Shown here: one piece after another, positions 2,499 to 12,330 of the stretch
Numbering within the stretch: position 1 is the stretch's first letter
How the letters are laid out: the number at the start of each line of letters is the position of its first letter
Assembly (NCBI GenBank): GCA_002689735.1
Contig: NZHS01000063.1
Location: 4,069-16,423, forward strand
DNA length: 12,355 bases
From: Flavobacteriales bacterium
Lineage (GTDB): Bacteria > Bacteroidota > Bacteroidia > Flavobacteriales > BACL11
Direction: 5' to 3'
Notes under the pieces: generated by a model
What the model was told of the DNA's origin: nothing
The model's input: the letters and a program-made list of their open reading frames with translations, nothing else
Database searches by the model: none
Program-made: the position numbers and the translations under genes

Positions 2499-3165
2499 CT
2501 ACGGTTAATATTCTTGCTAAACGTGCATTCATTAGTGCGACCTCTTCCGATAAGTCTTTTTCTTTAAATGCATTTACAACTGTCTTCCAGCTGTACCCTT
2601 TCTCATCAAATAAAGCGGTTGCTCGCTTGACTCCCAGTCCTGGAACTCCTGAATAACCATCAGTGTTGTCTCCAGCCAAACTCTGAATTAGATGCCACTT
2701 AGCACCTTCCTCTTTAGTTATAGTAAAAGATTGATCCAGATTGTAGAGTTGGCCTGAGATTTGCTTCATATCCTTATCAGGTGAGATAATGATATTTCCT
2801 GGATTTTTTGTACTATAAATTCCAAGAGCATCGTCTGCCTCTAAGGTAGGCATCTTGATAACTTCATACTCTTCTGATAGCTTATTAATGACTCTCCTGT
2901 AACCGCAAGGCTTCTTACGATTTCTGTGGCCTTTATACGACCCCTCTATTTCTTTTCTGAAATTTAAACTATCACTAAAAAATAAGATAGGTTCATCAAA
3001 TAATCCAAAGTGTCTACATACCCTATCAATGTCTCGTTTAACACAGCTATAGGCTTCAGAAAACTTAGAGGTTACAAAGATAACATCATCACCAAAGTTA
3101 ATCTCATCTTCGGCTGCAGCACAACATTTATATACTGTGAAGTCAGCATCAAAAAGCAGCTTCAT
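2401..3165 (-). CDS. 5'-3' exonuclease, T7 gp6-like / FEN family
   Basis: A 254-residue PIN/FEN-type nuclease. Motifs in order are DADFTVYKC at the N-terminus (first metal aspartate), FRKEIEGSYKGHR (arch basic region, about residues 68-80), EADDALG (about 108-114), ISPDKDM (about 127-133, metal aspartates) and the helix-three-turn-helix LAGDNTDGYSGVPGLG near 163-178, which binds duplex DNA. In T7 the equivalent gp6 removes RNA primers and degrades host DNA to recycle nucleotides. Here it follows the PD-(D/E)XK gene with an ATGA stop/start overlap at 3162-3165 and precedes the nucleotide-metabolism genes. The last 30 or so residues are encoded within the overlap with the next gene and look less family-like. 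Confidence 0.92.
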   Translation of the reverse strand: MKLLFDADFTVYKCCAAAEDEINFGDDVIFVTSKFSEAYSCVKRDIDRVCRHFGLFDEPILFFSDSLNFRKEIEGSYKGHRNRKKPCGYRRVINKLSEEYEVIKMPTLEADDALGIYSTKNPGNIIISPDKDMKQISGQLYNLDQSFTITKEEGAKWHLIQSLAGDNTDGYSGVPGLGVKRATALFDEKGYSWKTVVNAFKEKDLSEEVALMNARLARILTVDDYDFKEQKPILWTPSPDYRVDDGARLQATST

Positions 3166-3680
3166 ATGATTTTATAACCTCTGTACTTATTCATAGTGGT
3201 AGATGTTTTAAGCTCTCCACGGAAAGATGAACTCTCTAAAGCACTAATAGGTATGAGATAAATTTCTTCTGTCTTTAAGTTAACTGTGCATAAAAAGTCA
3301 AAGGCATCAATCTTATATCTACTTGTCTTAGGACCACTGGCTCTCATGCTTGATTTACCCAAGGTAATCCTATTGCGATCACTGATAGATTTGACTTGTA
3401 TTCGGGTAATCCCTGATTCACCATGAATGGTTAAATCATAATCACAAGGGGCTTCAAATCTAACGTCATAGCCAAGCCTACTTAGTGTGTTAAATGCTAT
3501 TAGCTCTGCAAATCTTCCTCGGTCTTGTGTATAGCCTCGTTCTTTAGGTTCTCCTAAATACTGACTAATGGACTTCGCTCCAGTTGAGTCCTGATTTAGA
3601 CTCGGCTGCGATAGGTACTCGCAAATTGTAGTACTCCCCAGCGGCTGCTGCAGAGTGTTCAAGGGTGAATTTAAGGTCAT
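3162..3680 (-). CDS. PD-(D/E)XK endonuclease, cyanobacterial group I intron (I-Ssp6803I-like) family
   Basis: A 172-residue nuclease. The fold signature is visible: DRGRFAELIAF with the first catalytic Glu, CDYDLTIHG with the metal Asp, then RIQVKS supplying the Q-x-K version of the (D/E)-x-K motif, followed by DFLCTVNLKTEEIYLIPI. This pattern fits the PD-(D/E)XK family that includes the cyanobacterial intron-encoded homing enzyme I-Ssp6803I. Free-standing phage copies may act as homing endonucleases or in DNA processing; which applies here is unknown. I chose ATG 3680; a TTG at 3731 extends the frame but adds residues without family likeness. With ATG 3680, the first 38 codons overlap the polymerase C-terminus. 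Two similar octapeptides, ICEYLSQP and ISQYLGEP, occur in the N-terminal part, the second just before the conserved domain. Confidence 0.78.
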   Translation of the reverse strand: MTLNSPLNTLQQPLGSTTICEYLSQPSLNQDSTGAKSISQYLGEPKERGYTQDRGRFAELIAFNTLSRLGYDVRFEAPCDYDLTIHGESGITRIQVKSISDRNRITLGKSSMRASGPKTSRYKIDAFDFLCTVNLKTEEIYLIPISALESSSFRGELKTSTTMNKYRGYKII

Positions 3681-4833
3681 TAATGTCTTTTTTTTCGCAC
3701 TCAAATTGAAGTTCGTCGTGTATGAAAGCAAGCTGTTGAGCGCGTAGGCCAGCTTCTTTGACGGTGTTATGAGTTATATAGAGCCAACGCTTCGCGATGC
3801 ACGCGGCTGACCCCTGTAAAAGGTAGTTAAGACTTTTGTGAGGACTATCTACTAGAAGTTTTCTTCCATCGATAGCCATGATCTCGCCTGTAGTAGACCG
3901 CTTCTTAATAGCCGATAACAACTCTGATAGTCCATCGATGGCGGCAATGAACGATTTACGTATTTCTTTTCCTTTAGCTCTTGCCTTATCTTCTGATAAT
4001 TGCTTATCAAAGGTTGTTCCAAGTTTGACATTTGAGGCTCCATATAAAAATGCATATGAGACACTTTTTACTTCACGTCTGGTAATACCAATTTTGTCAG
4101 CATTTACCTGATGAATGTCTCCGTTCAATAAGATGTCTGCATATCTACCACCGTCGTAACGGGCTAAGTAGTGTGCAAGCATTCTTAGTTCTATTCCGGC
4201 TAAATCTGCGCCAACCATCCATAAGTCTGGACTAGCAGTAAATAATTTTCTGTACTCAGACCCTGCAGGGCATTGGGCCACGTTGGGCTTGTTGTGCCGA
4301 CATCTAAAAGTATTAGTGGCGACTGAGCAGTGGTGATGGATACGGCTAGAGGTCGTACATAGCTTCAGCCATGCGTTCACGCCTTCTGATATCATTCCTA
4401 ATGCTTTCTTCAGTTCCAAGCATCGGAGAAACTTCAGAGCAGTATCCGTCCCAATCTCCTTTAAGACTATCTCGTCTACTACGGGCTTGCCGTTGGAGCT
4501 TATTAATGACGGCTTCCAGCCATAATGAGTTGTCAATACCCATGCAATATGATCTCTTGATGTAGGGTTTGTTTCTTTTAGTCGGATGCTTTCAGCACCA
4601 GCGACATAGCCTTGTGTCCGATTATTTCGTTTAGGATTAAATACTGATCCGGCAACGAAAGGATGCCTGTCTCGAAGTACTTGAGTAGTTTCTTCCAACT
4701 CTTTTCGGAGAGTTGATTCAAGTTCCCATGCAGATTTTTCATCAAAATACCATCCATGTAACTCCTGATTTGTTAATATTTCTGCGACCTTATGCTCTAA
4801 GACGAGCCAGTCACATAACGGTGGAAATGCCAT
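3565..4833 (-). CDS. DNA polymerase, family A, polymerase domain (separated by frame break)
   Basis: This frame encodes the T7 gp5-type polymerase domain. Motif A is GADLAGIELR (Asp210 from ATG 4833), motif B has R-x3-K-x3-Y-x3-Y-G (ITRREVKSVSYAFLYGA), and motif C is IHDELQF (about 371-377). The C-terminus GLNWSEVH matches the T7 ending, so the 3' end is intact. It would copy phage DNA together with the exonuclease domain encoded just upstream. The frame is -1 relative to that exonuclease, and the conserved link before WLVLEHKVAEI is only restored by one extra base near the run of five A at 4839-4843. If expressed separately, the first ATG is 4833, with a weak GGA about 9 bases ahead; a TTG at 4869 is also open. 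The motif B tyrosine corresponds to T7 Tyr526 (E. coli Phe762). Confidence 0.9.
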   Translation of the reverse strand: MAFPPLCDWLVLEHKVAEILTNQELHGWYFDEKSAWELESTLRKELEETTQVLRDRHPFVAGSVFNPKRNNRTQGYVAGAESIRLKETNPTSRDHIAWVLTTHYGWKPSLISSNGKPVVDEIVLKEIGTDTALKFLRCLELKKALGMISEGVNAWLKLCTTSSRIHHHCSVATNTFRCRHNKPNVAQCPAGSEYRKLFTASPDLWMVGADLAGIELRMLAHYLARYDGGRYADILLNGDIHQVNADKIGITRREVKSVSYAFLYGASNVKLGTTFDKQLSEDKARAKGKEIRKSFIAAIDGLSELLSAIKKRSTTGEIMAIDGRKLLVDSPHKSLNYLLQGSAACIAKRWLYITHNTVKEAGLRAQQLAFIHDELQFECEKKDINDLKFTLEHSAAAAGEYYNLRVPIAAESKSGLNWSEVH

Positions 4834-5315
4834 AGCAATTTTTCCGAGACCTTTACGTCTTGCTTGCAATACTCTTCCATCTCTTCGCTATATTCGCTCC
4901 AATCGGTAGTCTTACCGAAGTCACCCTTATAGGTTTTGAGACGATATCCGTATGACTCTAATGAGTGGCGGCCATATAGTTGAAGAGGCATATGCTCCCA
5001 CTTTTTATTTCTATCAATATCTAAAAGGTTCGGATGAAAAAGACGTGATAGAAGCAAAGTGTCAATAATACGAGCATTGGTAGAGAAATGGTTATATATT
5101 TTGCTAATAGCTGGGAGGTCAAAACCAAGGAGGTTGTGGCCGACAATTGTGTCTGCAACAGCCATTCTGGATAGTCCCTCAGTGATTGAGTACCTATTGT
5201 TTTTTTCGTCGTTAAAAGTTTCGATTTCATTTGTTTCTGAGTCATGAATGGCAATGCAATGTATACGTGTCAAGTCATGCAGCAGCCCATTAGTTTCGAT
5301 GTCAACGACGAGCAT
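4797..5315 (-). CDS. DNA polymerase, family A, 3'-5' exonuclease domain (separated by frame break)
   Basis: The proofreading half of a T7 gp5-like polymerase. Exo I is VVDIETNG (Asp-x-Glu) at the N-terminus, Exo II is GHNLLGFDLPA, and Exo III is EYCKQDV with Tyr-x3-Asp. I chose ATG 5315 because GGAG lies 5 bases ahead and MLVVDIETNG matches the T7 start; ATG 5330 adds five residues. After the Exo III helix (KVSEKLL) the frame runs 14 residues and stops at 4797, while the expected continuation lies in the -1 frame from about 4840. Joined at the A run, the product would be about 583 residues, a normal size for short phage polymerases. It could be a true split, programmed frameshift, mutation or sequence error; intact motifs on both sides argue against old decay. 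Confidence 0.88.
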   Translation of the reverse strand: MLVVDIETNGLLHDLTRIHCIAIHDSETNEIETFNDEKNNRYSITEGLSRMAVADTIVGHNLLGFDLPAISKIYNHFSTNARIIDTLLLSRLFHPNLLDIDRNKKWEHMPLQLYGRHSLESYGYRLKTYKGDFGKTTDWSEYSEEMEEYCKQDVKVSEKLLWHFHRYVTGSS

Positions 5316-5532
5316 TAGGTCTCCACTCATAAGTCTTATCTTTGAATTGAGCTTTCTTCACTGCCTCCTCGCTGGGTGGCTTAGGTTTATTTAATTGTGT
5401 TGAGTCCTTAGCGTGTTTATACCAAGGGTGTTCATATTCGCTTTCTTCAAAAATCCGTGGTTTCGCTGGTTCCACGGAAAAAGGATGATTCCGGAGTTTC
5501 ATTCTCACTAAATCGGCAGTTGGATAAGTCAT
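5302..5532 (-). CDS. Small hypothetical protein between primase-helicase and DNA polymerase
   Basis: A 76-residue, highly polar, charged protein with no recognised domain. It contains EYEHPWYKHAKD, a lysine/proline-rich middle (KPKPPSEE) and a basic C-terminus ending RPNARR. It fills the 131-base gap between the primase-helicase stop and the polymerase start, overlapping the former by 86 bases and the latter by 14, in keeping with the tight packing of the operon. The first ATG is 5532; ATG 5502 is an alternative that shortens the overlap. No signal peptide or membrane segment is visible. The evidence for coding is mainly its position and the otherwise unexplained gap, so the call is moderate. 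Confidence 0.55.
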   Translation of the reverse strand: MTYPTADLVRMKLRNHPFSVEPAKPRIFEESEYEHPWYKHAKDSTQLNKPKPPSEEAVKKAQFKDKTYEWRPNARR

Positions 5533-7045
5533 ACGTCAATTTTGTTGCTACGCCACATTCGCCTGAATATCTATTTTTAATAACTCTAAGAGTCGTAGTA
5601 TTTCGTTCTTCTTCACTCTGTTGGTTTCGTTCCAGAGCGATGACCGAATCGCTGAGTTGAGCGATACTATGAGACCCTCTAAGCTGGGAGAGAGACACTC
5701 TGCCTCCTTCCTCGTGGGATTTTTTGTCATTACTTGATCTCCTTAAATGGCTTACTAGAAATAGAGCTATGCCTGTTCTTTCAACTAGGCTTCGTAGACG
5801 TGTCATCGTAATATCCAGCATTCGTCTTTCGTCTCCCTCTAATCCGGACAATAATATCGACAAATGATCCAAGAAAATAACCTTACAATCTAAGCCAGTA
5901 GCTAGATACTCTATGCGGTTATAGATAACGTCGGGATCAAACGACCCGAACCCATCAAACATATAGAGATTCCAGTTAGCAATTGATTTATTGAACGCTT
6001 CTTTAAGTTCTTCCTCATCATGCTCTCCTAGATGTAATGACTTCCCAACAGCAGATGACATCAAGCCTAAAGCTGTTTGTCGGTTACTCTCTTCAAGTGC
6101 CAAGTACCCAACCCGTTCGCCCTTGACGAGCAAGTCAGTTGCAATTTCACGGCAGATGGAGCTTTTTCCTTGGCCAGAGCCACTAGTAAATGTCGTAAGT
6201 GTTCCGTACCTGATCCCGTGTAATTTCTGGTTGAGTCCTCTATATGGGTATTCATGATCAAATGGTTTTGTGGGTGTAGTGACTTCATTTAATAAAGTCT
6301 TTGCATCAATGATCCCATCAGGTTGATATACAGTGGCGTTCCAAATTGCCTTCCTTATGGCTTCCGCATCGTTCGCCTGTAAAGCGTCTGAAGCGTCTTT
6401 ATAGGTCTCCATCTTGGCGATTTTGACCTTCCCAGGTGGTAGTACTGATGCAGCCTCCTTTGCTGCTTCTCTTCCTGCAGTATCTCCATCAAAGAAGAGT
6501 ACAATTTCTTGGTATCCTTGAAAAAATGGAATCTGTTTCTTAATATCTTTTTTCGCACCTTTTGCTCCGTGTGGTAGTGATACATGAGGCCAACCTGTGA
6601 GTGCCTCGTAGCCTGATGCAGCATCTAATTCCCCTTCATAAACCACGACCCGTTTGCCAGTACTAGGGAATAAATGCTGACCAAAGAGAGTATCAGTGCT
6701 GTTGCCTTCATAGTAAAAATCCTTTTGTTTAGTCTTTACTTTTGCGCCCTGAAGTATTCCGTCGTTCGTGAAATAATGGAAGCGTAGTAGTTCTCCGTCT
6801 CTATATATTTTGTAGAGTTGGTTTGTTTTTTCGGAGATTCCTCGTTTATGCAGCCTTTGGGCTGATCCTTTGAGTTGGACATTAGTAGGCATGGATGTAG
6901 TGTGGGTTACCTCTCCAGTTGCAGAGGTGTGGTGATCGCATACGTAGCAATGTGTGTGTCCATCAGAGTAGAGAGATGCTCCGTCTGATGAACCACATGA
7001 ATTGCAAGAGATATGCCGGACGTGTTCGCTCTCTATATGAGCCAT
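5447..7045 (-). CDS. DNA primase-helicase, T7 gp4-like
   Basis: A 532-residue bifunctional replication protein. The N-terminal zinc ribbon has Cys14-x2-Cys17 and Cys33-x2-Cys36, nearly the spacing of T7 gp4A, so the full primase form is encoded. The TOPRIM core shows EGELDA (about 137-142) and FFDGDTAG (about 184-191). The helicase domain carries Walker A SGSGQGKSS (about 288-296) and Walker B VIFLDH (Asp393), followed by SHLRR and QLRGSHSIAQLSDSVIALER, typical of the DnaB/gp4 RecA-like fold. It unwinds DNA as a hexamer and lays primers for the phage polymerase. I chose ATG 7045, which overlaps the endonuclease stop by 13 bases; a TTG at 7066 would add seven residues of no family likeness. 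The C-terminus is acidic and ends in Phe, as in T7 gp4, where that tail contacts the polymerase. Confidence 0.95.
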   Translation of the reverse strand: MAHIESEHVRHISCNSCGSSDGASLYSDGHTHCYVCDHHTSATGEVTHTTSMPTNVQLKGSAQRLHKRGISEKTNQLYKIYRDGELLRFHYFTNDGILQGAKVKTKQKDFYYEGNSTDTLFGQHLFPSTGKRVVVYEGELDAASGYEALTGWPHVSLPHGAKGAKKDIKKQIPFFQGYQEIVLFFDGDTAGREAAKEAASVLPPGKVKIAKMETYKDASDALQANDAEAIRKAIWNATVYQPDGIIDAKTLLNEVTTPTKPFDHEYPYRGLNQKLHGIRYGTLTTFTSGSGQGKSSICREIATDLLVKGERVGYLALEESNRQTALGLMSSAVGKSLHLGEHDEEELKEAFNKSIANWNLYMFDGFGSFDPDVIYNRIEYLATGLDCKVIFLDHLSILLSGLEGDERRMLDITMTRLRSLVERTGIALFLVSHLRRSSNDKKSHEEGGRVSLSQLRGSHSIAQLSDSVIALERNQQSEEERNTTTLRVIKNRYSGECGVATKLTYDLSNCRFSENETPESSFFRGTSETTDF

Positions 7046-7386: not shown

Positions 7387-7967
7387 TAGAAGTCATCGGT
7401 TTCAACTGAGGAAGGTGTACCAGCCGCCTCAATCTCTACGTTAGGTGCGCTAGTTTTAAAGCCGTTGCATGTTCCAAACAGTTTGGCTGCGTCGTCGTCA
7501 TTCATATCTCCGGTATCCATCCCAACGCCATCTTTAAGAGACACAACTTGGATAGCACTTATCCTTAGTGTGGTTCCATAAGTGACTTCATCTTGTAGGA
7601 CATAAGGCTTTTGCTTGAAAGCTAACTTGACCATACTGCCTGAATAGATAGGCGTGTCCTTGTTAACGATGGCACTACCTTCTGTATCTAATACGGGAGG
7701 CTTGTTGTTCTCTTTCCATGAGAACTTGACACTATATTTACCATCGCTGACCTCCTCCCATGGCGTGGGCTTGAGGGATGATCGTGCTTTATTTTTTAAT
7801 TTTGACTCTGCCCATTTTAAAGCTGATACTCTTTCCTCTTCTAGTTTGTCTATGAGACTTTCGTCTACTACTGCGACAAGATTGTATGTGCCAAATTTTC
7901 CTGGCTTGAGGATGGCCTGAAAACCTTCAAGGATGACAGGCTCTGATGTGGTATGGGTAATACTCAT
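7386..7967 (-). CDS. Single-stranded DNA-binding protein, T7 gp2.5-like
   Basis: A 193-residue protein placed between RNA polymerase and endonuclease I, the position of gp2.5. It has a beta-rich OB-like body (LEGFQAILKPGKFGTYNLVA, then GKYSVKFSWKENNK, then LRISAIQVVSL) and ends with an acidic tail that finishes ETDDF; in gp2.5 the acidic tail with terminal Phe docks the polymerase and helicase. It also has the Asp-rich GDMNDDDA segment. I chose ATG 7967, which overlaps the RNA polymerase stop as TAATG; a TTG at 7973 would add two residues. No Shine-Dalgarno is seen, so translation is probably coupled to the upstream gene. Confidence 0.88.
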   Translation of the reverse strand: MSITHTTSEPVILEGFQAILKPGKFGTYNLVAVVDESLIDKLEEERVSALKWAESKLKNKARSSLKPTPWEEVSDGKYSVKFSWKENNKPPVLDTEGSAIVNKDTPIYSGSMVKLAFKQKPYVLQDEVTYGTTLRISAIQVVSLKDGVGMDTGDMNDDDAAKLFGTCNGFKTSAPNVEIEAAGTPSSVETDDF

Positions 7968-10309
7968 TAACAAAAAAAGTAAGTGGATTCAATCACTGAC
8001 TCAGGTTTGAGGTCTCCAATGATTGGTGGGTTTGTCTCTGCTCCGATTTGACGTGCAAAGTCTGTTAAATAATCATGATTAGCGAACATATTTTTATACG
8101 TCTCTCGCACGACCTTGGATAACTCGGTCATGTCTGTCGCTCTACATAAGACACTATCGTGTATGAGAGCTATTGGCTTATTATTAAACGCTAAAGTTGA
8201 GAGGCAAAGTAAACTGGCATCCATAGAATGAATTAGGTTGGGTGCAGTTGCAGCCTTGTGTCTGGCCTTGTCTACTACCTTTGTCTCATCAGTTGCGACG
8301 CTCATCTTACATAGACCTAAGAGTTGAAGTTGCATTGTCTTAATCTGTTTCTTCATTAGTCTTTGAGTGACTACGAAACCAGTGGGCGTGACCCATGACA
8401 ATTCAGTAACTCCACGCTTAAGTGCTTTACTGACCTCCTCTTCTATCCATTTCATAACTCGCATCGGTCCTGGAACTATGACATTCATTGCATCCCTAAC
8501 TGCGTGGACAGTAGCTATTAAATCTTCCTTACTAACTTCAACTCCTTTTTCTAGCAAAGCTTCCTTGATGTACGCTTTATTGGAGTAAAATTTACTATTG
8601 TAAGGCAAGGTCATGACTACGCGCTTGACAGTTTTTCTGTCCATATATTCTTTAACTGAATCAGGACAGTTAGGTTTAGCAGTTTCAGCTACTACTTTGT
8701 AGGCATCTTGTGGCTTATCTGTTGGCAAGACGTTCACTAAGGAAGCGGTCTGTCTGTCAGCGGCCAAAGAGGCGAGCAGCTGGAGTCCTGAACAAGTGGC
8801 ATCTATAGCCACCATTAAGCCTGTACTACAGCGGTCTTTCTTAATGACACAGTGGTACATCTCATCGCAACTACTAAGGAATTGCCAAGGCTCGTCAGCT
8901 ACTTCCCACTCTGAAATAGTCCCAATTGGATCTAAAGCTATCCGACTAATTAAGTCCTCATTTTCATAAGTCCAATGAAGACGATCTTGAATAGTTTCTT
9001 TATCTAACCCATACGTAGTGGCTGCACTAAAACGAATCCAACGCTCAGCCTCATCGTCCATAAAGGATTCATCAGCGAATTTTAAGAGGCTCTTCCCGAA
9101 GTCGGTACATTGAGGCGTTAATAAGGCAGGGATCGGATAAATTCTGGAGCGGTAGTCAAACGACCACGGAATCCAAAACTTATCAACATCCTTAAACCTT
9201 TTAACTGCCTCCATCTGCAGCCGAGTTCTACAAGACTTCTTAAACTCTTGAGCATTGAGGTCTCTGATCTTAGTAGCAGCCCTTCTGTATGCCTTCCTTG
9301 ACTCAGCATTCTCTGCTATGTCAGACGGTTTAGGTGGTAGCTCATGATTATGAACAGGGAGGAACTTACCGACACTGATCTGTTTTTCTTCTAGCTGTTC
9401 AGCTACTGAAACAGTGAATGGATTTAGTGTGTAAGCAACCTTTTGCACCTTGTTTAGAAAGGCAATTGGTTTCTCTCCCTGTATACGTGGTGAGTTGGAT
9501 CTGCGGACCATATCGTGGCCCAACATAACCTCGTTCAAAAGATATCCACCAGCCTTACCATTCTCCCAATCATTAGGAGGTATCAGCATGGGAAAAGTCA
9601 GTGGTGCAAACAGTTCAGCGTTGGCCATGACCTCATCCTTTATCTTCATAAAGGCATCGGTTGGGATTAAATACTGAACACTTTTATTACCAAACTGCTT
9701 AATGTCCTTTTGAAACCAGCCACTGGTCTTTAAAACACATTCAAGTAGCCAGCCTCCAAGCTTGACTCGTATCGATCTGCCCCAAGCTTTCCACTGTTTA
9801 ACATCACATCGGTTCATCAAGGTCTGAATGACCACGACCTTTTGCTGAGTCCCTGTGGATTTATGCCAGTAATTCTTTTTTAAAACTTCTAACAATCCTG
9901 GAGCGTGCTTTTGATAGTGGAGTAGTTGCGCCTCATTCTCCACAGCATTGCCCACAGCATCGCAGATATTGACCAATTGATTACTTCCAGCCCTCGTGCT
10001 AAACACCTTGTCAAAGACGATTTTGCAGGTGATAGAGGCGGCTGCCATCGGCTCAATCTCATGTAAGTATTGAGCTATTTCTTTAAATAAAACACCATTT
10101 TGTCTTTGATGGATTCGTGAGTTGGTTCGTTCTATTTCTTCTGTGACTAATGGCAGTAATGATTCAATTGAAGCAATGCCATAAACAGAAGCAGATGAGT
10201 ACTCCTTATCCTCTAAACGTTTGGTGTTATCTCTTAACTTTTCTATACCTAGTCGGATTTGTTCTCTTTCCAGCAGAATCTGCCGTTCAATCTGGTCCGG
10301 TGAAACCAT
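7967..10309 (-). CDS. Single-subunit DNA-dependent RNA polymerase, T7-like
   Basis: A 780-residue phage RNA polymerase that would transcribe the later phage genes from phage promoters. Catalytic motifs are all present: the DYRSRIYP segment near 385-392, motif A VAIDATCSGLQ (Asp503), motif B VKRVVMTLPYNS (Lys562, Tyr570) and motif C IHDSV (Asp718), matching T7 Asp537, Lys631, Tyr639 and Asp812. T7 has Gly after the motif B tyrosine, here Asn571. The C-terminus ends STYFFC instead of the T7 FAFA foot. It is about 100 residues shorter than T7 gp1. The ATG at 10309 has no clear Shine-Dalgarno. A terminator-like hairpin lies about 65 bases upstream, so its transcript probably starts from its own promoter between them, or reads through. 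Confidence 0.96.
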   Translation of the reverse strand: MVSPDQIERQILLEREQIRLGIEKLRDNTKRLEDKEYSSASVYGIASIESLLPLVTEEIERTNSRIHQRQNGVLFKEIAQYLHEIEPMAAASITCKIVFDKVFSTRAGSNQLVNICDAVGNAVENEAQLLHYQKHAPGLLEVLKKNYWHKSTGTQQKVVVIQTLMNRCDVKQWKAWGRSIRVKLGGWLLECVLKTSGWFQKDIKQFGNKSVQYLIPTDAFMKIKDEVMANAELFAPLTFPMLIPPNDWENGKAGGYLLNEVMLGHDMVRRSNSPRIQGEKPIAFLNKVQKVAYTLNPFTVSVAEQLEEKQISVGKFLPVHNHELPPKPSDIAENAESRKAYRRAATKIRDLNAQEFKKSCRTRLQMEAVKRFKDVDKFWIPWSFDYRSRIYPIPALLTPQCTDFGKSLLKFADESFMDDEAERWIRFSAATTYGLDKETIQDRLHWTYENEDLISRIALDPIGTISEWEVADEPWQFLSSCDEMYHCVIKKDRCSTGLMVAIDATCSGLQLLASLAADRQTASLVNVLPTDKPQDAYKVVAETAKPNCPDSVKEYMDRKTVKRVVMTLPYNSKFYSNKAYIKEALLEKGVEVSKEDLIATVHAVRDAMNVIVPGPMRVMKWIEEEVSKALKRGVTELSWVTPTGFVVTQRLMKKQIKTMQLQLLGLCKMSVATDETKVVDKARHKAATAPNLIHSMDASLLCLSTLAFNNKPIALIHDSVLCRATDMTELSKVVRETYKNMFANHDYLTDFARQIGAETNPPIIGDLKPESVIESTYFFC

Positions 10310-10559: not shown

Positions 10560-11444
10560 CTAGATCGCAGCTTGAGCTTTTTTCAAAGACTCATCGGTTG
10601 CTTTTGCATATCGTAGTGTGGTGTCAATGCGCTTGTGTCCCATGAGTTTCATGAGTGTTCGCATTGGTGTCCCTGCTTCTGCGTGCCACGTACCATATGT
10701 ATGGCGGAGTACGTGCCAGTGATAGGGATTGTCCTCGTGATAGTCAGTACCAATTCCACAGTAATTACGAATTTTATTGAAGGTTTTGCTAACCATAAAA
10801 CGGCTAGACCATTCCTCCCCAAAGACGCTCATCTGTGGATCAGTTCCTTCAAGTCTTGAGGATAAAACTTGAATACATCGATCGTGTATCGGTATGGCGC
10901 GGTGATTCTTGGCTTTGGTTTGAACATCTGGTCGTCCACCAATGTGAACTAACTTACGTCCAAGATCTACATCCCTTACTTTCATCTTTAATGTTTCTGA
11001 AACTCGCGTTCCCATAAACACGCTGAAAATAATGAGATCAGCCAGATCATCACGGCCAAACGGATCACGTGATGCACGTATCAGGCGTTCTACCTCGTTC
11101 CTTTGAAAGAACAATTCAACACCTTCTCCCTCTTCTCGTCGTTGGAATTTGGGAGGAAAATAGGAGCTAACTCCTTCTAGATGACACCACTTAAGACATT
11201 GGGATACTGCAGAGGTCACTCTGTTTATCGTTGAGTCCTTGTGGCACTTCTCCTCTTCTAAGTAAGTTTGAAACTCACTGACCAAAGAGCGTGAGATATT
11301 GGAGAGCTTGATGCTTCTCCCGTATTCATTGGTGAAGTGATTGGTGTTAATGCGAGCAGCTTCTGAGCCACCGCCTCGTCTCCATTTGTCATATGTGCGG
11401 AATGTGTAGTCCAATGCTGGACCCCACGTCCGGATGTCACTCAT
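10560..11444 (-). CDS. int: Tyrosine-type site-specific integrase
   Basis: A 294-residue tyrosine recombinase. The N-terminal half is a core-binding-like helical domain (SLVSEFQTYLEEE, then INRVTSAVSQCLKW). The catalytic half shows FMGTRVSE with the first Arg (about residue 152), a beta-hairpin Lys region (TKAKNHRAIPI), HVLRHTYGTWHAEAG with His-x-x-Arg (about 244-247), MGHKRIDTT with the second His, and RYAKA with the nucleophilic Tyr near the C-terminus. It would recombine the phage attP with a host tRNA-Leu gene. The start is supported by GGAG 7 bases before ATG 11444. Its first 8 bases overlap the end of the MarR-like gene, so the two are co-translated. No excisionase was recognised, though small DNA-binding proteins nearby could fill that role. 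Confidence 0.95.
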   Translation of the reverse strand: MSDIRTWGPALDYTFRTYDKWRRGGGSEAARINTNHFTNEYGRSIKLSNISRSLVSEFQTYLEEEKCHKDSTINRVTSAVSQCLKWCHLEGVSSYFPPKFQRREEGEGVELFFQRNEVERLIRASRDPFGRDDLADLIIFSVFMGTRVSETLKMKVRDVDLGRKLVHIGGRPDVQTKAKNHRAIPIHDRCIQVLSSRLEGTDPQMSVFGEEWSSRFMVSKTFNKIRNYCGIGTDYHEDNPYHWHVLRHTYGTWHAEAGTPMRTLMKLMGHKRIDTTLRYAKATDESLKKAQAAI

Positions 11445-11793
11445 AAAGAATCTCCTTGATGGTTTTAATTAAGTCCCGACCCTTGGAAGAAAGCGAAAGT
11501 GTGACCCTACGCTTGTTGCACTCATCCGGCTCTTTCACGATTAACCCCAATGCAGGGCGGCCAAGAATTGGATTTTTCTTAGCAAGCCAGTCTGTATTAC
11601 GAGACGTACTAGCAGTAGAGAGGTTGAGATCCTGTTCTAATGCAGTCTTATGCCCACCCTCATGACTTGCAACCCATAAAAGCGTTGCCATCACTTGGCC
11701 TGGCACATCTCGGTCATACAGCCGAATCAAATTGATCACCTTGAGTAGACGAGCAATCTTGGGATCGGTGAGTTGTTTCCTTAGAGGGTCCAT
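11437..11793 (-). CDS. MarR-like winged-helix regulator
   Basis: A 118-residue protein with the layout of MarR-type regulators: an N-terminal helix, VPGQVMATLLWVASHEGG, a helix-turn-helix region (KTALEQDLNLSTASTSRNTDWLAKK split around residues 50-73), then a wing with LGLIVKEPDECNKRRVTLSLSSKG and a C-terminal helix. It has the typical D-x-x-x-x-R-R wing pattern (DECNKRR). The start is well supported by GAGAGGA 5 bases before the ATG. It is the first gene of a two-gene unit with the integrase and could control lysogeny genes or its own leader; the upstream region contains an inverted repeat at 11990-12021 that is a candidate operator. Target and ligand are unknown. Confidence 0.8.
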   Translation of the reverse strand: MDPLRKQLTDPKIARLLKVINLIRLYDRDVPGQVMATLLWVASHEGGHKTALEQDLNLSTASTSRNTDWLAKKNPILGRPALGLIVKEPDECNKRRVTLSLSSKGRDLIKTIKEILYE

Positions 11794-11966
11794 CCGTTCC
11801 TCTCAATGGTTTGGGACCACCTAATTGTAATTGAAATTTCCATAAGTGGACATTGACTTCGTGGTAGGCCACGTCATCAACGCCTAAATAGAAATCACCG
11901 AATGAAAAGAGGGTACGCATTGCGTTAAATCGAAGTAAACAACAGAGATTTGCATAGATTTAGAGG

Positions 11967-11980
11967 ACAGGATATGTAAA
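11967..11980 (-). repeat. ACAGGAT-type motif, copy B
   Basis: Plus-strand ACAGGATATGTAAA; in the coding direction TTTACATATCCTGT. Closest to copy A before the RNA polymerase, sharing ACAGGAT and the AAA end. Confidence 0.35.
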
Positions 11981-11989
11981 ATGAGTAGT

Positions 11990-12021
11990 GTGTTACCCAT
12001 GTACAGGATGATACATAACAC
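11990..12021. promoter_or_regulatory. Interrupted inverted repeat, candidate operator
   Basis: GTGTT pairs with AACAC and, inside it, ATGTA pairs with TACAT, with a 4-base bulge (ACCC) on the left arm and an 8-base centre (CAGGATGA). It contains motif copy C. Located about 200 bases upstream of the MarR-like gene, it could bind that protein or the ribbon-helix-helix protein; an RNA hairpin is also possible. Confidence 0.35.
12003..12020 (-). repeat. ACAGGAT-type motif, copy C
   Basis: Plus-strand ACAGGATGATACATAACA. It shares CAGGAYGATAYATAA with copy D at 12079, differing at two positions, and sits in the centre and right arm of the inverted repeat. Confidence 0.4.
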
Positions 12022-12078
12022 CCCACATTTAGTGTCTGATGCTACAGGTTTTCTTCACATAAGCATTTCCTATCCATA

Positions 12079-12094
12079 TCAGGACGATATATAA
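12079..12094 (-). repeat. ACAGGAT-type motif, copy D
   Basis: Plus-strand TCAGGACGATATATAA, 76 bases from copy C and close to it in sequence. The plus strand also reads TATAAT here, but no gene follows on that strand. Confidence 0.35.
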
Positions 12095-12162
12095 TTGCTA
12101 TTATTTATAGTTTTCCTAGGTGTGCAATGTTTTATTAAGACATTTGACCATTTAACCTGTAT

Positions 12163-12330
12163 TTACAGTTGATCTGTAGTTACATCTTTGTTGACTAAAT
12201 ATAACTTAGCAGCCTCAACCATAACAGTATTAACAGTCAAACCCCTTTCAGCAGCTATAACTTTGATCTTTCTGTGGAGATATTCTTCCAGCTGAACAGT
12301 TATACGCTTCAAGGAATTTGTTAAGCACAA
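12163..12330 (-). CDS. Small ribbon-helix-helix (Arc/MetJ-type) DNA-binding protein
   Basis: A 55-residue protein with the clear pattern of a ribbon-helix-helix monomer: a beta strand KRITVQL (residues 8-14), helix A EEYLHRKIKVIAAERG (15-30), a turn LTVN, and helix B TVMVEAAKLYLVNKD (35-49). Such proteins bind DNA as dimers through the strand and often repress their own operon. There is no ATG: the frame follows a TAA, and the candidate starts are TTG 12330 (AAGG only 1 base ahead) and TTG 12312, which begins directly at KRITV. The weak start leaves open a truncated gene. It is upstream of the MarR-integrase unit and could be part of the lysogeny control or an excisionase-like factor. Confidence 0.6.
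   Translation of the reverse strand: MCLTNSLKRITVQLEEYLHRKIKVIAAERGLTVNTVMVEAAKLYLVNKDVTTDQL

What the first reader, a model, noticed from the sequence alone, without database searches (positions are those of the whole stretch)
4797..4869. DNA polymerase gene split by a -1 frame change at a run of five A
The exonuclease frame ends at 4797 and the polymerase frame opens upstream at 4869 (first ATG 4833). All exo and pol motifs are intact. Adding one A to the AAAAA at 4839-4843 would give a continuous protein of about 583 residues through KIAMAFPPLCDWLVLEH. The local context is TCG GAA AAA TTG; this is not a textbook X-XXY-YYZ slippery heptamer. The options are sequence error, recent mutation, programmed frameshift, or two separately translated subunits (ATG 4833 with weak GGA).
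Basis: partly seen in the sequence, partly recalled or inferred. Interest (0 to 1): 0.72.

Follow-up and report, generated by a model that had tools for sequence, protein, structure and literature searches.

The report
Phage DNA polymerase in two genes
In this cyanobacterial phage and its close relatives the proofreading half and the copying half of the DNA polymerase appear to be made as two proteins from overlapping genes; the break is an old, conserved design and not a sequencing error or a damaged gene.

Summary
In detail: exonuclease ORF 4797-5330(-) and polymerase ORF 3565-4833(-) overlap by 37 nt in the -1 frame. A polymerase start codon sits at the same exo Leu-Trp/Cys codons in 232 of 232 distinct overlapping junctions. 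Programmed -1 frameshifting is unlikely: canonical heptamers in 5 of 232, no conserved RNA structure in a sample, a close relative with a methyltransferase gene inserted at the polymerase start, and a sister clade with separate genes in all three offsets, up to 949 nt apart. The split arose once, inside single-chain lineages (support 100). Best reading: two separately translated subunits, probably bound non-covalently (inferred). The split was already recorded for P-SSP7 as 'putative frameshift or ... split variant'; the comparative decision for the split is what is added. No protein was measured.

The parts
4797..5330 (-). Proofreading 3'-5' exonuclease subunit gene (homologue of the N-terminal domain of T7 gp5), 177 aa
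   Evidence: PHROG 17 'DNA polymerase' E 3.6e-30 and PHROG 403 'DNA polymerase exonuclease subunit' E 2.8e-23; Pfam only RNase_H_2 E 1e-7; T7 gp5 structures E 1.9e-18; catalytic D10, E12, D71, D158; pN 0.15-0.19 against pS 0.67-0.84 in 5 comparisons
3565..4833 (-). Polymerase subunit gene (family A polymerase without exonuclease domain), 422 aa from ATG 4833
   Evidence: Pfam DNA_pol_A E 2.3e-35; PHROG 15971 E 4.1e-140; T7 gp5 E 1.3e-47; catalytic residues intact; pN 0.13-0.18 against pS 0.52-0.64
4797..4833 (-). 37-nt overlap read in two frames: exonuclease C-terminal tail and polymerase N-terminal stretch
   Evidence: -1 overlap geometry in 232 distinct junctions
4831..4833 (-). Polymerase start codon ATG, made from the exo Leu (CTA) and Trp (TGG) codons
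   Evidence: Start codon at the homologous codons in 232 of 232 distinct junctions (203 ATG, 27 TTG of 230; L339 and L340 with ATG)
4797..4799 (-). Exonuclease stop codon TAG, lying inside the polymerase codons of a conserved Leu-Glu-His motif
   Evidence: TAG in 200 of 200 junctions with the standard -37 geometry
4839..4843 (-).
   Evidence: canonical in-frame heptamer in 5 of 232 junctions; base before the Lys codon varies freely

Best explanation
The phage encodes a T7-type (family A) DNA polymerase as two separate proteins: a 177-aa proofreading exonuclease and a 422-aa polymerase. The polymerase gene starts at its own ATG (4833) inside the end of the exonuclease gene, in the -1 frame, and ribosomes initiate there independently or helped by translation of the overlapping upstream gene. 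The arrangement came from one ancient fission of a single-chain gene and has been kept by selection across a clade that includes P-SSP7 and S-TIP37 (P-SSP7's clade is called MPP-B in PMC9860041, passages). Shown here: the split, its conservation, single origin, conserved start codon, purifying selection on both parts, and natural relatives in which other DNA lies between the two. Inferred: that two proteins are made, that they bind each other non-covalently as the two domains do within T7 gp5, and how initiation works, since most junctions have no Shine-Dalgarno motif.
For: (1) Conservation: the 80 best of 594 IMG/VR relatives are all split; of 343 sequences in the wider set 279 are split, 53 fused, 11 cut off before the exonuclease; 21 of 21 fetched isolate or fosmid records of the clade are split. 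(2) Start codon at the same codons in 232 of 232 distinct junctions. The exo Leu codon that gives its first base ends in A (203) or T (27), never in C or G, of 230; 7 other conserved Leu columns upstream of the overlap use all six codons and end in A in 20-51%. (3) Natural separations: in L032 a 279-aa C5 cytosine methyltransferase ORF (5178-6017; Pfam E 9e-50) lies between the genes. Homology to its relative L030, which has no insert, stops at L030's polymerase start codon (L032:5155 = L030:5993) and resumes at L032:6000, with 93.8% and 89.7% identity on the two flanks; the L032 polymerase has its own ATG at 5992. L242/L302 (one contig) carry another insert there. (4) Sister clade: 79 of the 80 loci hold an exonuclease and all 79 are split, in the three frame offsets (31/27/21), gaps -14 to +949 nt, median 219. 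(5) Tree: split clade plus sister clade together, support 100, nested in fused lineages (0.998 with L246 alone as sister). (6) Contigs L001 and L002, from two IMG metagenomes, differ from the window by 4 in 6800 and 1 in 6900 bases, no gaps, and have the same break.
Against: A Shine-Dalgarno-like motif precedes the polymerase start in only 3 of 230 junctions, against 54 of 79 in the sister clade; how the internal start is chosen is open. The force of this is limited, because the motif is rare at annotated starts of five related phages too (6 of 46). In 27 of 230 the start is the weaker TTG. In 144 of 230 the polymerase frame is open for 15-96 nt upstream of the start, so a shift there could physically yield a fusion. 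No protein-level evidence was obtained. P-SSP7 proteomics, as described in PMC3350473 (passage), left both options open. A low level of fused product is not excluded. Binding of the two proteins was not tested; structure jobs did not run.
Confidence: 0.88

Rival explanations
1. Programmed -1 ribosomal frameshifting in the overlap makes a full-length exonuclease-polymerase fusion, alone or beside the separate exonuclease.
For: The offset is -1 in 276 of 279 split loci; record notes for P-SSP7 and S-TIP37 name it as possible; the Lys codon before the start is AAA in 203 of 230; the polymerase frame is open 15-96 nt upstream in 144 of 230.
Against: Canonical in-frame X XXY YYZ heptamer in 5 of 232 junctions; base before the Lys codon A70 T65 C48 G47 of 230; polymerase frame closed by a stop 3 or 6 nt upstream of the start codon in 86 of 230. 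No consensus structure in four windows of 60 of 200 sampled junctions; window fold z -1.1, 29 of 200 shuffles as good. Conserved start codon. Relatives with inserts and a sister clade in three offsets cannot work that way. The fixed -1 offset has another explanation: the exo stop TAG lies inside conserved Leu-Glu codons of the polymerase.
Confidence: 0.07
2. Sequencing or assembly error, or a recent mutation in this phage.
For: The break lies near a five-base homopolymer.
Against: Same break in two other metagenome contigs of nearly identical sequence, in the 80 relatives and in isolates.
Confidence: 0.01
3. A decaying polymerase gene whose function has been lost.
For: Two pieces in two frames; one paper speaks of 'a frameshift mutation' in polA genes of some members of its cyanophage clade (PMC6370689, passage).
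Against: Catalytic residues kept; purifying selection on both pieces in 5 of 5 comparisons; split kept across the clade.
Confidence: 0.02

Closest known systems
P-SSP7 ORF17A/17B and S-TIP37 17A/17B
   Same: Same two ORFs, same -1 offset, polymerase start 37 nt before the exo stop codon
   Different: In the window the start lies 34 nt before it; their annotation leaves frameshift or split open
T7 gp5 DNA polymerase (family A)
   Same: Homologous exo and pol domains, catalytic residues conserved
   Different: One chain in T7; the window polymerase lacks some 40 residues that T7 has near T7 260-310, where the thioredoxin-binding segment lies (location recalled)
Syn5, P60, S-CBP2, S-CBP42 (MPP-A in PMC9860041, passages), S-TIP28, P-RSP2, pelagiphages HTVC309P and HTVC022P
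   Same: Related polymerases
   Different: Single continuous gene
OM43 phages MEP401/MEP402
   Same: Polymerase coded by two ORFs (PMC10580990, passages)
   Different: Split within the polymerase domain with a small ORF between, not between exonuclease and polymerase
Group 1 jumbo phage DNA polymerases
   Same: No fused exonuclease; a standalone exonuclease is coded elsewhere (PMC7824862, passages)
   Different: A different, divergent polymerase, and the genes are not adjacent halves of one family A gene
Bacterial Pol III epsilon/alpha
   Same: Works like: proofreading exonuclease and polymerase on separate subunits (recalled)
   Different: Family C polymerase, not homologous to this polymerase (recalled)

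Membership tests
Split family A polymerase of the P-SSP7 clade (MPP-B) | Exonuclease and polymerase as two ORFs overlapping in the -1 frame | tested here: met
Split family A polymerase of the P-SSP7 clade (MPP-B) | Polymerase groups with P-SSP7 and S-TIP37 | tested here: met
   the 46 sampled split sequences, window included, form one group, support 100
Split family A polymerase of the P-SSP7 clade (MPP-B) | Start codon for the polymerase at the conserved Leu-Trp/Cys codons | tested here: met
   (CTA TGG in the window)
Programmed -1 frameshift gene | Conserved slippery heptamer in the overlap | tested here: not met
   5 of 232 junctions; the window's context is none
Programmed -1 frameshift gene | Conserved stimulatory RNA structure | tested here: not met
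   (nested structures only; 60 of 200 junctions sampled)
Programmed -1 frameshift gene | Fusion protein made | not testable with these tools
   Needs mass spectrometry
Family A (T7-type) polymerase | Family A sequence and catalytic residues | tested here: met
Family A (T7-type) polymerase | Proofreading domain on the same chain, as in T7 | tested here: not met
   (by gene structure)
Two-subunit polymerase complex | The two proteins bind each other | not testable with these tools

The most novel reading that the evidence does not exclude
A large branch of marine phages, the P-SSP7 clade and an uncultured sister clade, replicates with a genuinely two-subunit family A polymerase born from one ancient gene fission. 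The proofreading subunit is a free, separately dosed protein, and in many of the sister clade a small protein coded between the two genes may be a further part of the enzyme.
Probability: 0.6. Interest if true: 0.6.

Novelty: new member of a known kind. Interest (0 to 1): 0.5.

Why it matters
The polymerase gene is used as a marker for cyanophage diversity and lifestyle (PMC4646655 and PMC6370689, passages). Yet in this clade it is recorded as frameshift or split, and 12 of the 21 fetched records show no CDS for either gene. Comparative evidence now favours two subunits. If so, the amounts of exonuclease and polymerase could be set apart from each other, and the coupling of synthesis and proofreading in T7-type enzymes could be studied with parts that evolution has already separated.

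Tried and rejected
Slippery sites: codons within 60 nt before the exo stop in 232 distinct junctions, 5 canonical heptamers. Conserved RNA structure: none in 60 of 200 sampled junctions, gapless, nested pairs only. Window fold: not significant. Shine-Dalgarno motifs at the polymerase start, 3 of 230, and at exo starts, 27 of 201, against 6 of 46 annotated starts in five phages, their polymerase starts among them: this does not discriminate. RNA around the start was somewhat more open than at random exo positions (mean unpaired 0.494, n=120, against 0.419, n=119; rows are related, so the p value is not independent). Intron or intein: no intervening sequence in the window. Papers: ten searches; passages seen in nine papers, none read whole. 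In these I saw nothing that decides between split and frameshift for these phages. The 2005 P-SSP7 genome paper was looked for under an id recalled from memory and is not held.

Limits and dropped rows. The search for related loci lists are capped at the 80 best. 11 loci without exonuclease and L407 were set aside; L083, which is the window itself, was left out; 274 overlapping loci gave 232 distinct 180-nt junctions. Some contigs were fetched twice (for example L242 and L302). In one search one row was out of phase and the window's own Leu aligned one codon off, so the counts are used; Leu column 201 lies in the overlap and is biased the other way (CTG), as the polymerase frame demands. The small-ORF count rests on simple patterns and is approximate. 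The tree is a sample of 92.

Full report
What is there. The window carries a T7-like cyanophage replication module on the minus strand: an integrase at 10560-11444 and an RNA polymerase at 7967-10309, further ORFs, the exonuclease and polymerase ORFs, and on towards a ribonucleotide-reductase-like ORF at 349-1734 (that name is recalled from its sequence and from the gene order of relatives). The exonuclease ORF 4797-5330 and the polymerase ORF 3565-4833 overlap by 37 nt in the -1 frame. The polymerase piece matches Pfam DNA_pol_A and PHROG 15971. The exonuclease piece matches PHROG 17 'DNA polymerase' and PHROG 403 'DNA polymerase exonuclease subunit', but in Pfam only RNase_H_2. Both pieces hit T7 gp5 best among solved structures, and the catalytic residues are intact.

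It is not an error. Contigs L001 and L002, from two IMG metagenomes, match the window over 6800 and 6900 bases with 4 and 1 mismatches and no gaps, and show the same break. The 80 best IMG/VR relatives (of 594 found) are all split; 79 keep the -1 offset with overlap and one, L032, has an insert. Of the 27 isolate or fosmid records classed, 21 are split. Twenty of these have the usual junction in that call's output; in the last, P-GSP1, the record has a further break upstream, but the usual junction can be seen. The other six are fused: P60, Syn5, S-CBP2, S-CBP42, S-TIP28, HTVC309P. P-RSP2, HTVC022P and T7 are fused as well. The 21 are part of the records listed.

Wider survey. Three further scans with polymerases of 9515-10a, Syn5 and S-CBP1 (each capped at 80) brought the set to 343 sequences: 279 split, 53 fused, 11 cut off before the exonuclease. 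Of the 279, 276 have the -1 offset; the others are L032, L087 and L246. Without the insert loci L242 and L302, 274 overlap, and these hold 232 distinct junctions.

The start codon is what is conserved. In 230 of the 232 junctions a polymerase-frame start codon (203 ATG, 27 TTG) lies 31-49 nt before the exo stop, made from the last base of an exo Leu codon and a following TGG or TGC. The other two, L339 and L340, have a longer exo tail but the same ATG. The Leu codon never ends in C or G at this place; at seven other conserved Leu columns upstream of the overlap all six codons occur, with A-endings of 20-51%. By contrast the base before the Lys codon that precedes it is nearly random, and canonical heptamers occur in 5 of 232. 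In 86 of 230 the polymerase frame is closed 3 or 6 nt upstream of the start codon; in the other 144 it is open for 15-96 nt. No consensus RNA structure was found in a sample of 60. The fixed -1 offset follows from coding: the exo stop TAG lies inside the Leu-Glu codons of a motif conserved in the polymerase (TAG in 200 of 200 junctions of standard geometry).

Natural separations. L032 has a 279-aa C5 cytosine methyltransferase ORF (5178-6017) between the two genes. Similarity to its relative L030, which has no insert, runs to L032:5155 (L030:5993, in L030's polymerase start codon) and resumes at L032:6000 (L030:6001), with 93.8% over 5173 and 89.7% over 3091 aligned columns, so it is not a chimaera of distant phages. 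The exonuclease has a new short tail ending at 5190, the methyltransferase ORF (ATG 5178) overlaps its last 13 nt, and the polymerase has its own ATG at 5992, inside the end of the methyltransferase ORF. L242/L302, one contig fetched twice, has another insert: a short cysteine-rich ORF starts at the homologous Leu-Trp ATG (2665), and the polymerase has a new ATG at 2983. That ORF had no Pfam match.

Sister clade. L246, first seen as an odd case, led to 79 more loci (the 80 best of 347). In 79 of the 80 the exonuclease is on the contig, and all 79 are split, with 31, 27 and 21 loci in the three frame offsets. The distance from exo stop to polymerase start runs from -14 to +949 nt (median 219; 18 overlap), and a Shine-Dalgarno-like motif precedes the start in 54 of 79. 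In 51 of 79 a small ORF of one recognisable type lies between. Across this clade a -1 shift could not be the general way to join the two.

Tree. A maximum-likelihood tree of 92 sampled polymerases rooted on T7 puts split cyanophages (46) and sister clade (23) together with support 100, inside a series of fused lineages; the node that joins the nearest fused group (4 sequences) has support 95 and the next deeper node 66. FastTree on 292 sequences agrees (0.998; no fused sequence inside). One fission explains the split forms seen. Whether the ancestor had the overlap or a gap cannot be told.

How it most likely works. Shown: two intact reading frames under purifying selection (five comparisons), a conserved start codon and natural separations. 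Inferred: separate translation of both from one message, and a non-covalent complex. Open: how ribosomes find the internal start without a Shine-Dalgarno motif in 227 of 230 junctions.

Against what is known. [quoted passage not shown] the P-SSP7 and S-TIP37 records say much the same. A later paper speaks of a frameshift mutation in polA of some members of its cyanophage clade (PMC6370689, passage). The window is thus a new member of a known, undecided case. The comparative evidence here favours two genes with high but not full confidence, since no protein was measured.

Noticed in passing
L246 and L344-L422, between exo and pol genes: Sister clade of uncultured phages with exonuclease and polymerase genes apart; a small ORF of roughly 75-100 aa lies between them in 51 of 79 loci by a simple pattern count and could be a further subunit.
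   Followed up: partly
L032:5178-6017: C5 cytosine DNA methyltransferase gene inserted between exonuclease and polymerase of a close relative, the insert beginning at the place of the polymerase start codon.
   Followed up: yes
L242:2665-2985: Another insert at the same place, with a short cysteine-rich ORF and, by eye, an HNH-like stretch in another frame; no Pfam match for the short ORF.
   Followed up: partly
L081, L085-L091, L097, L100, L101, L107: 12 of the 21 fetched records of this clade show no annotated CDS for either polymerase gene.
   Followed up: yes
window 3565-4833 (-): Polymerase is shorter than T7 gp5 by some 40 residues near T7 260-310, where the thioredoxin-binding segment is recalled to lie; the fused-type phage S-TIP28 carries an annotated thioredoxin gene.
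   Followed up: partly
window 3162-3731 (-): ORF of unknown function (PHROG 5018, residues 68-172 only) whose listed start lies inside the polymerase gene; the true start is probably further downstream.
   Followed up: no
window 10560-12330 (-): Integrase, a PHROG 9665 transcriptional regulator and an Arc-like repressor beside the RNA polymerase; the window lies in contig C66 of a 1.0-Mb, 63.6% complete genome. Possible temperate phage, or a phage caught in a cell or bin.
   Followed up: no
L087 (P-GSP1): The record has further frame breaks in the exonuclease and polymerase genes, perhaps sequence errors.
   Followed up: partly
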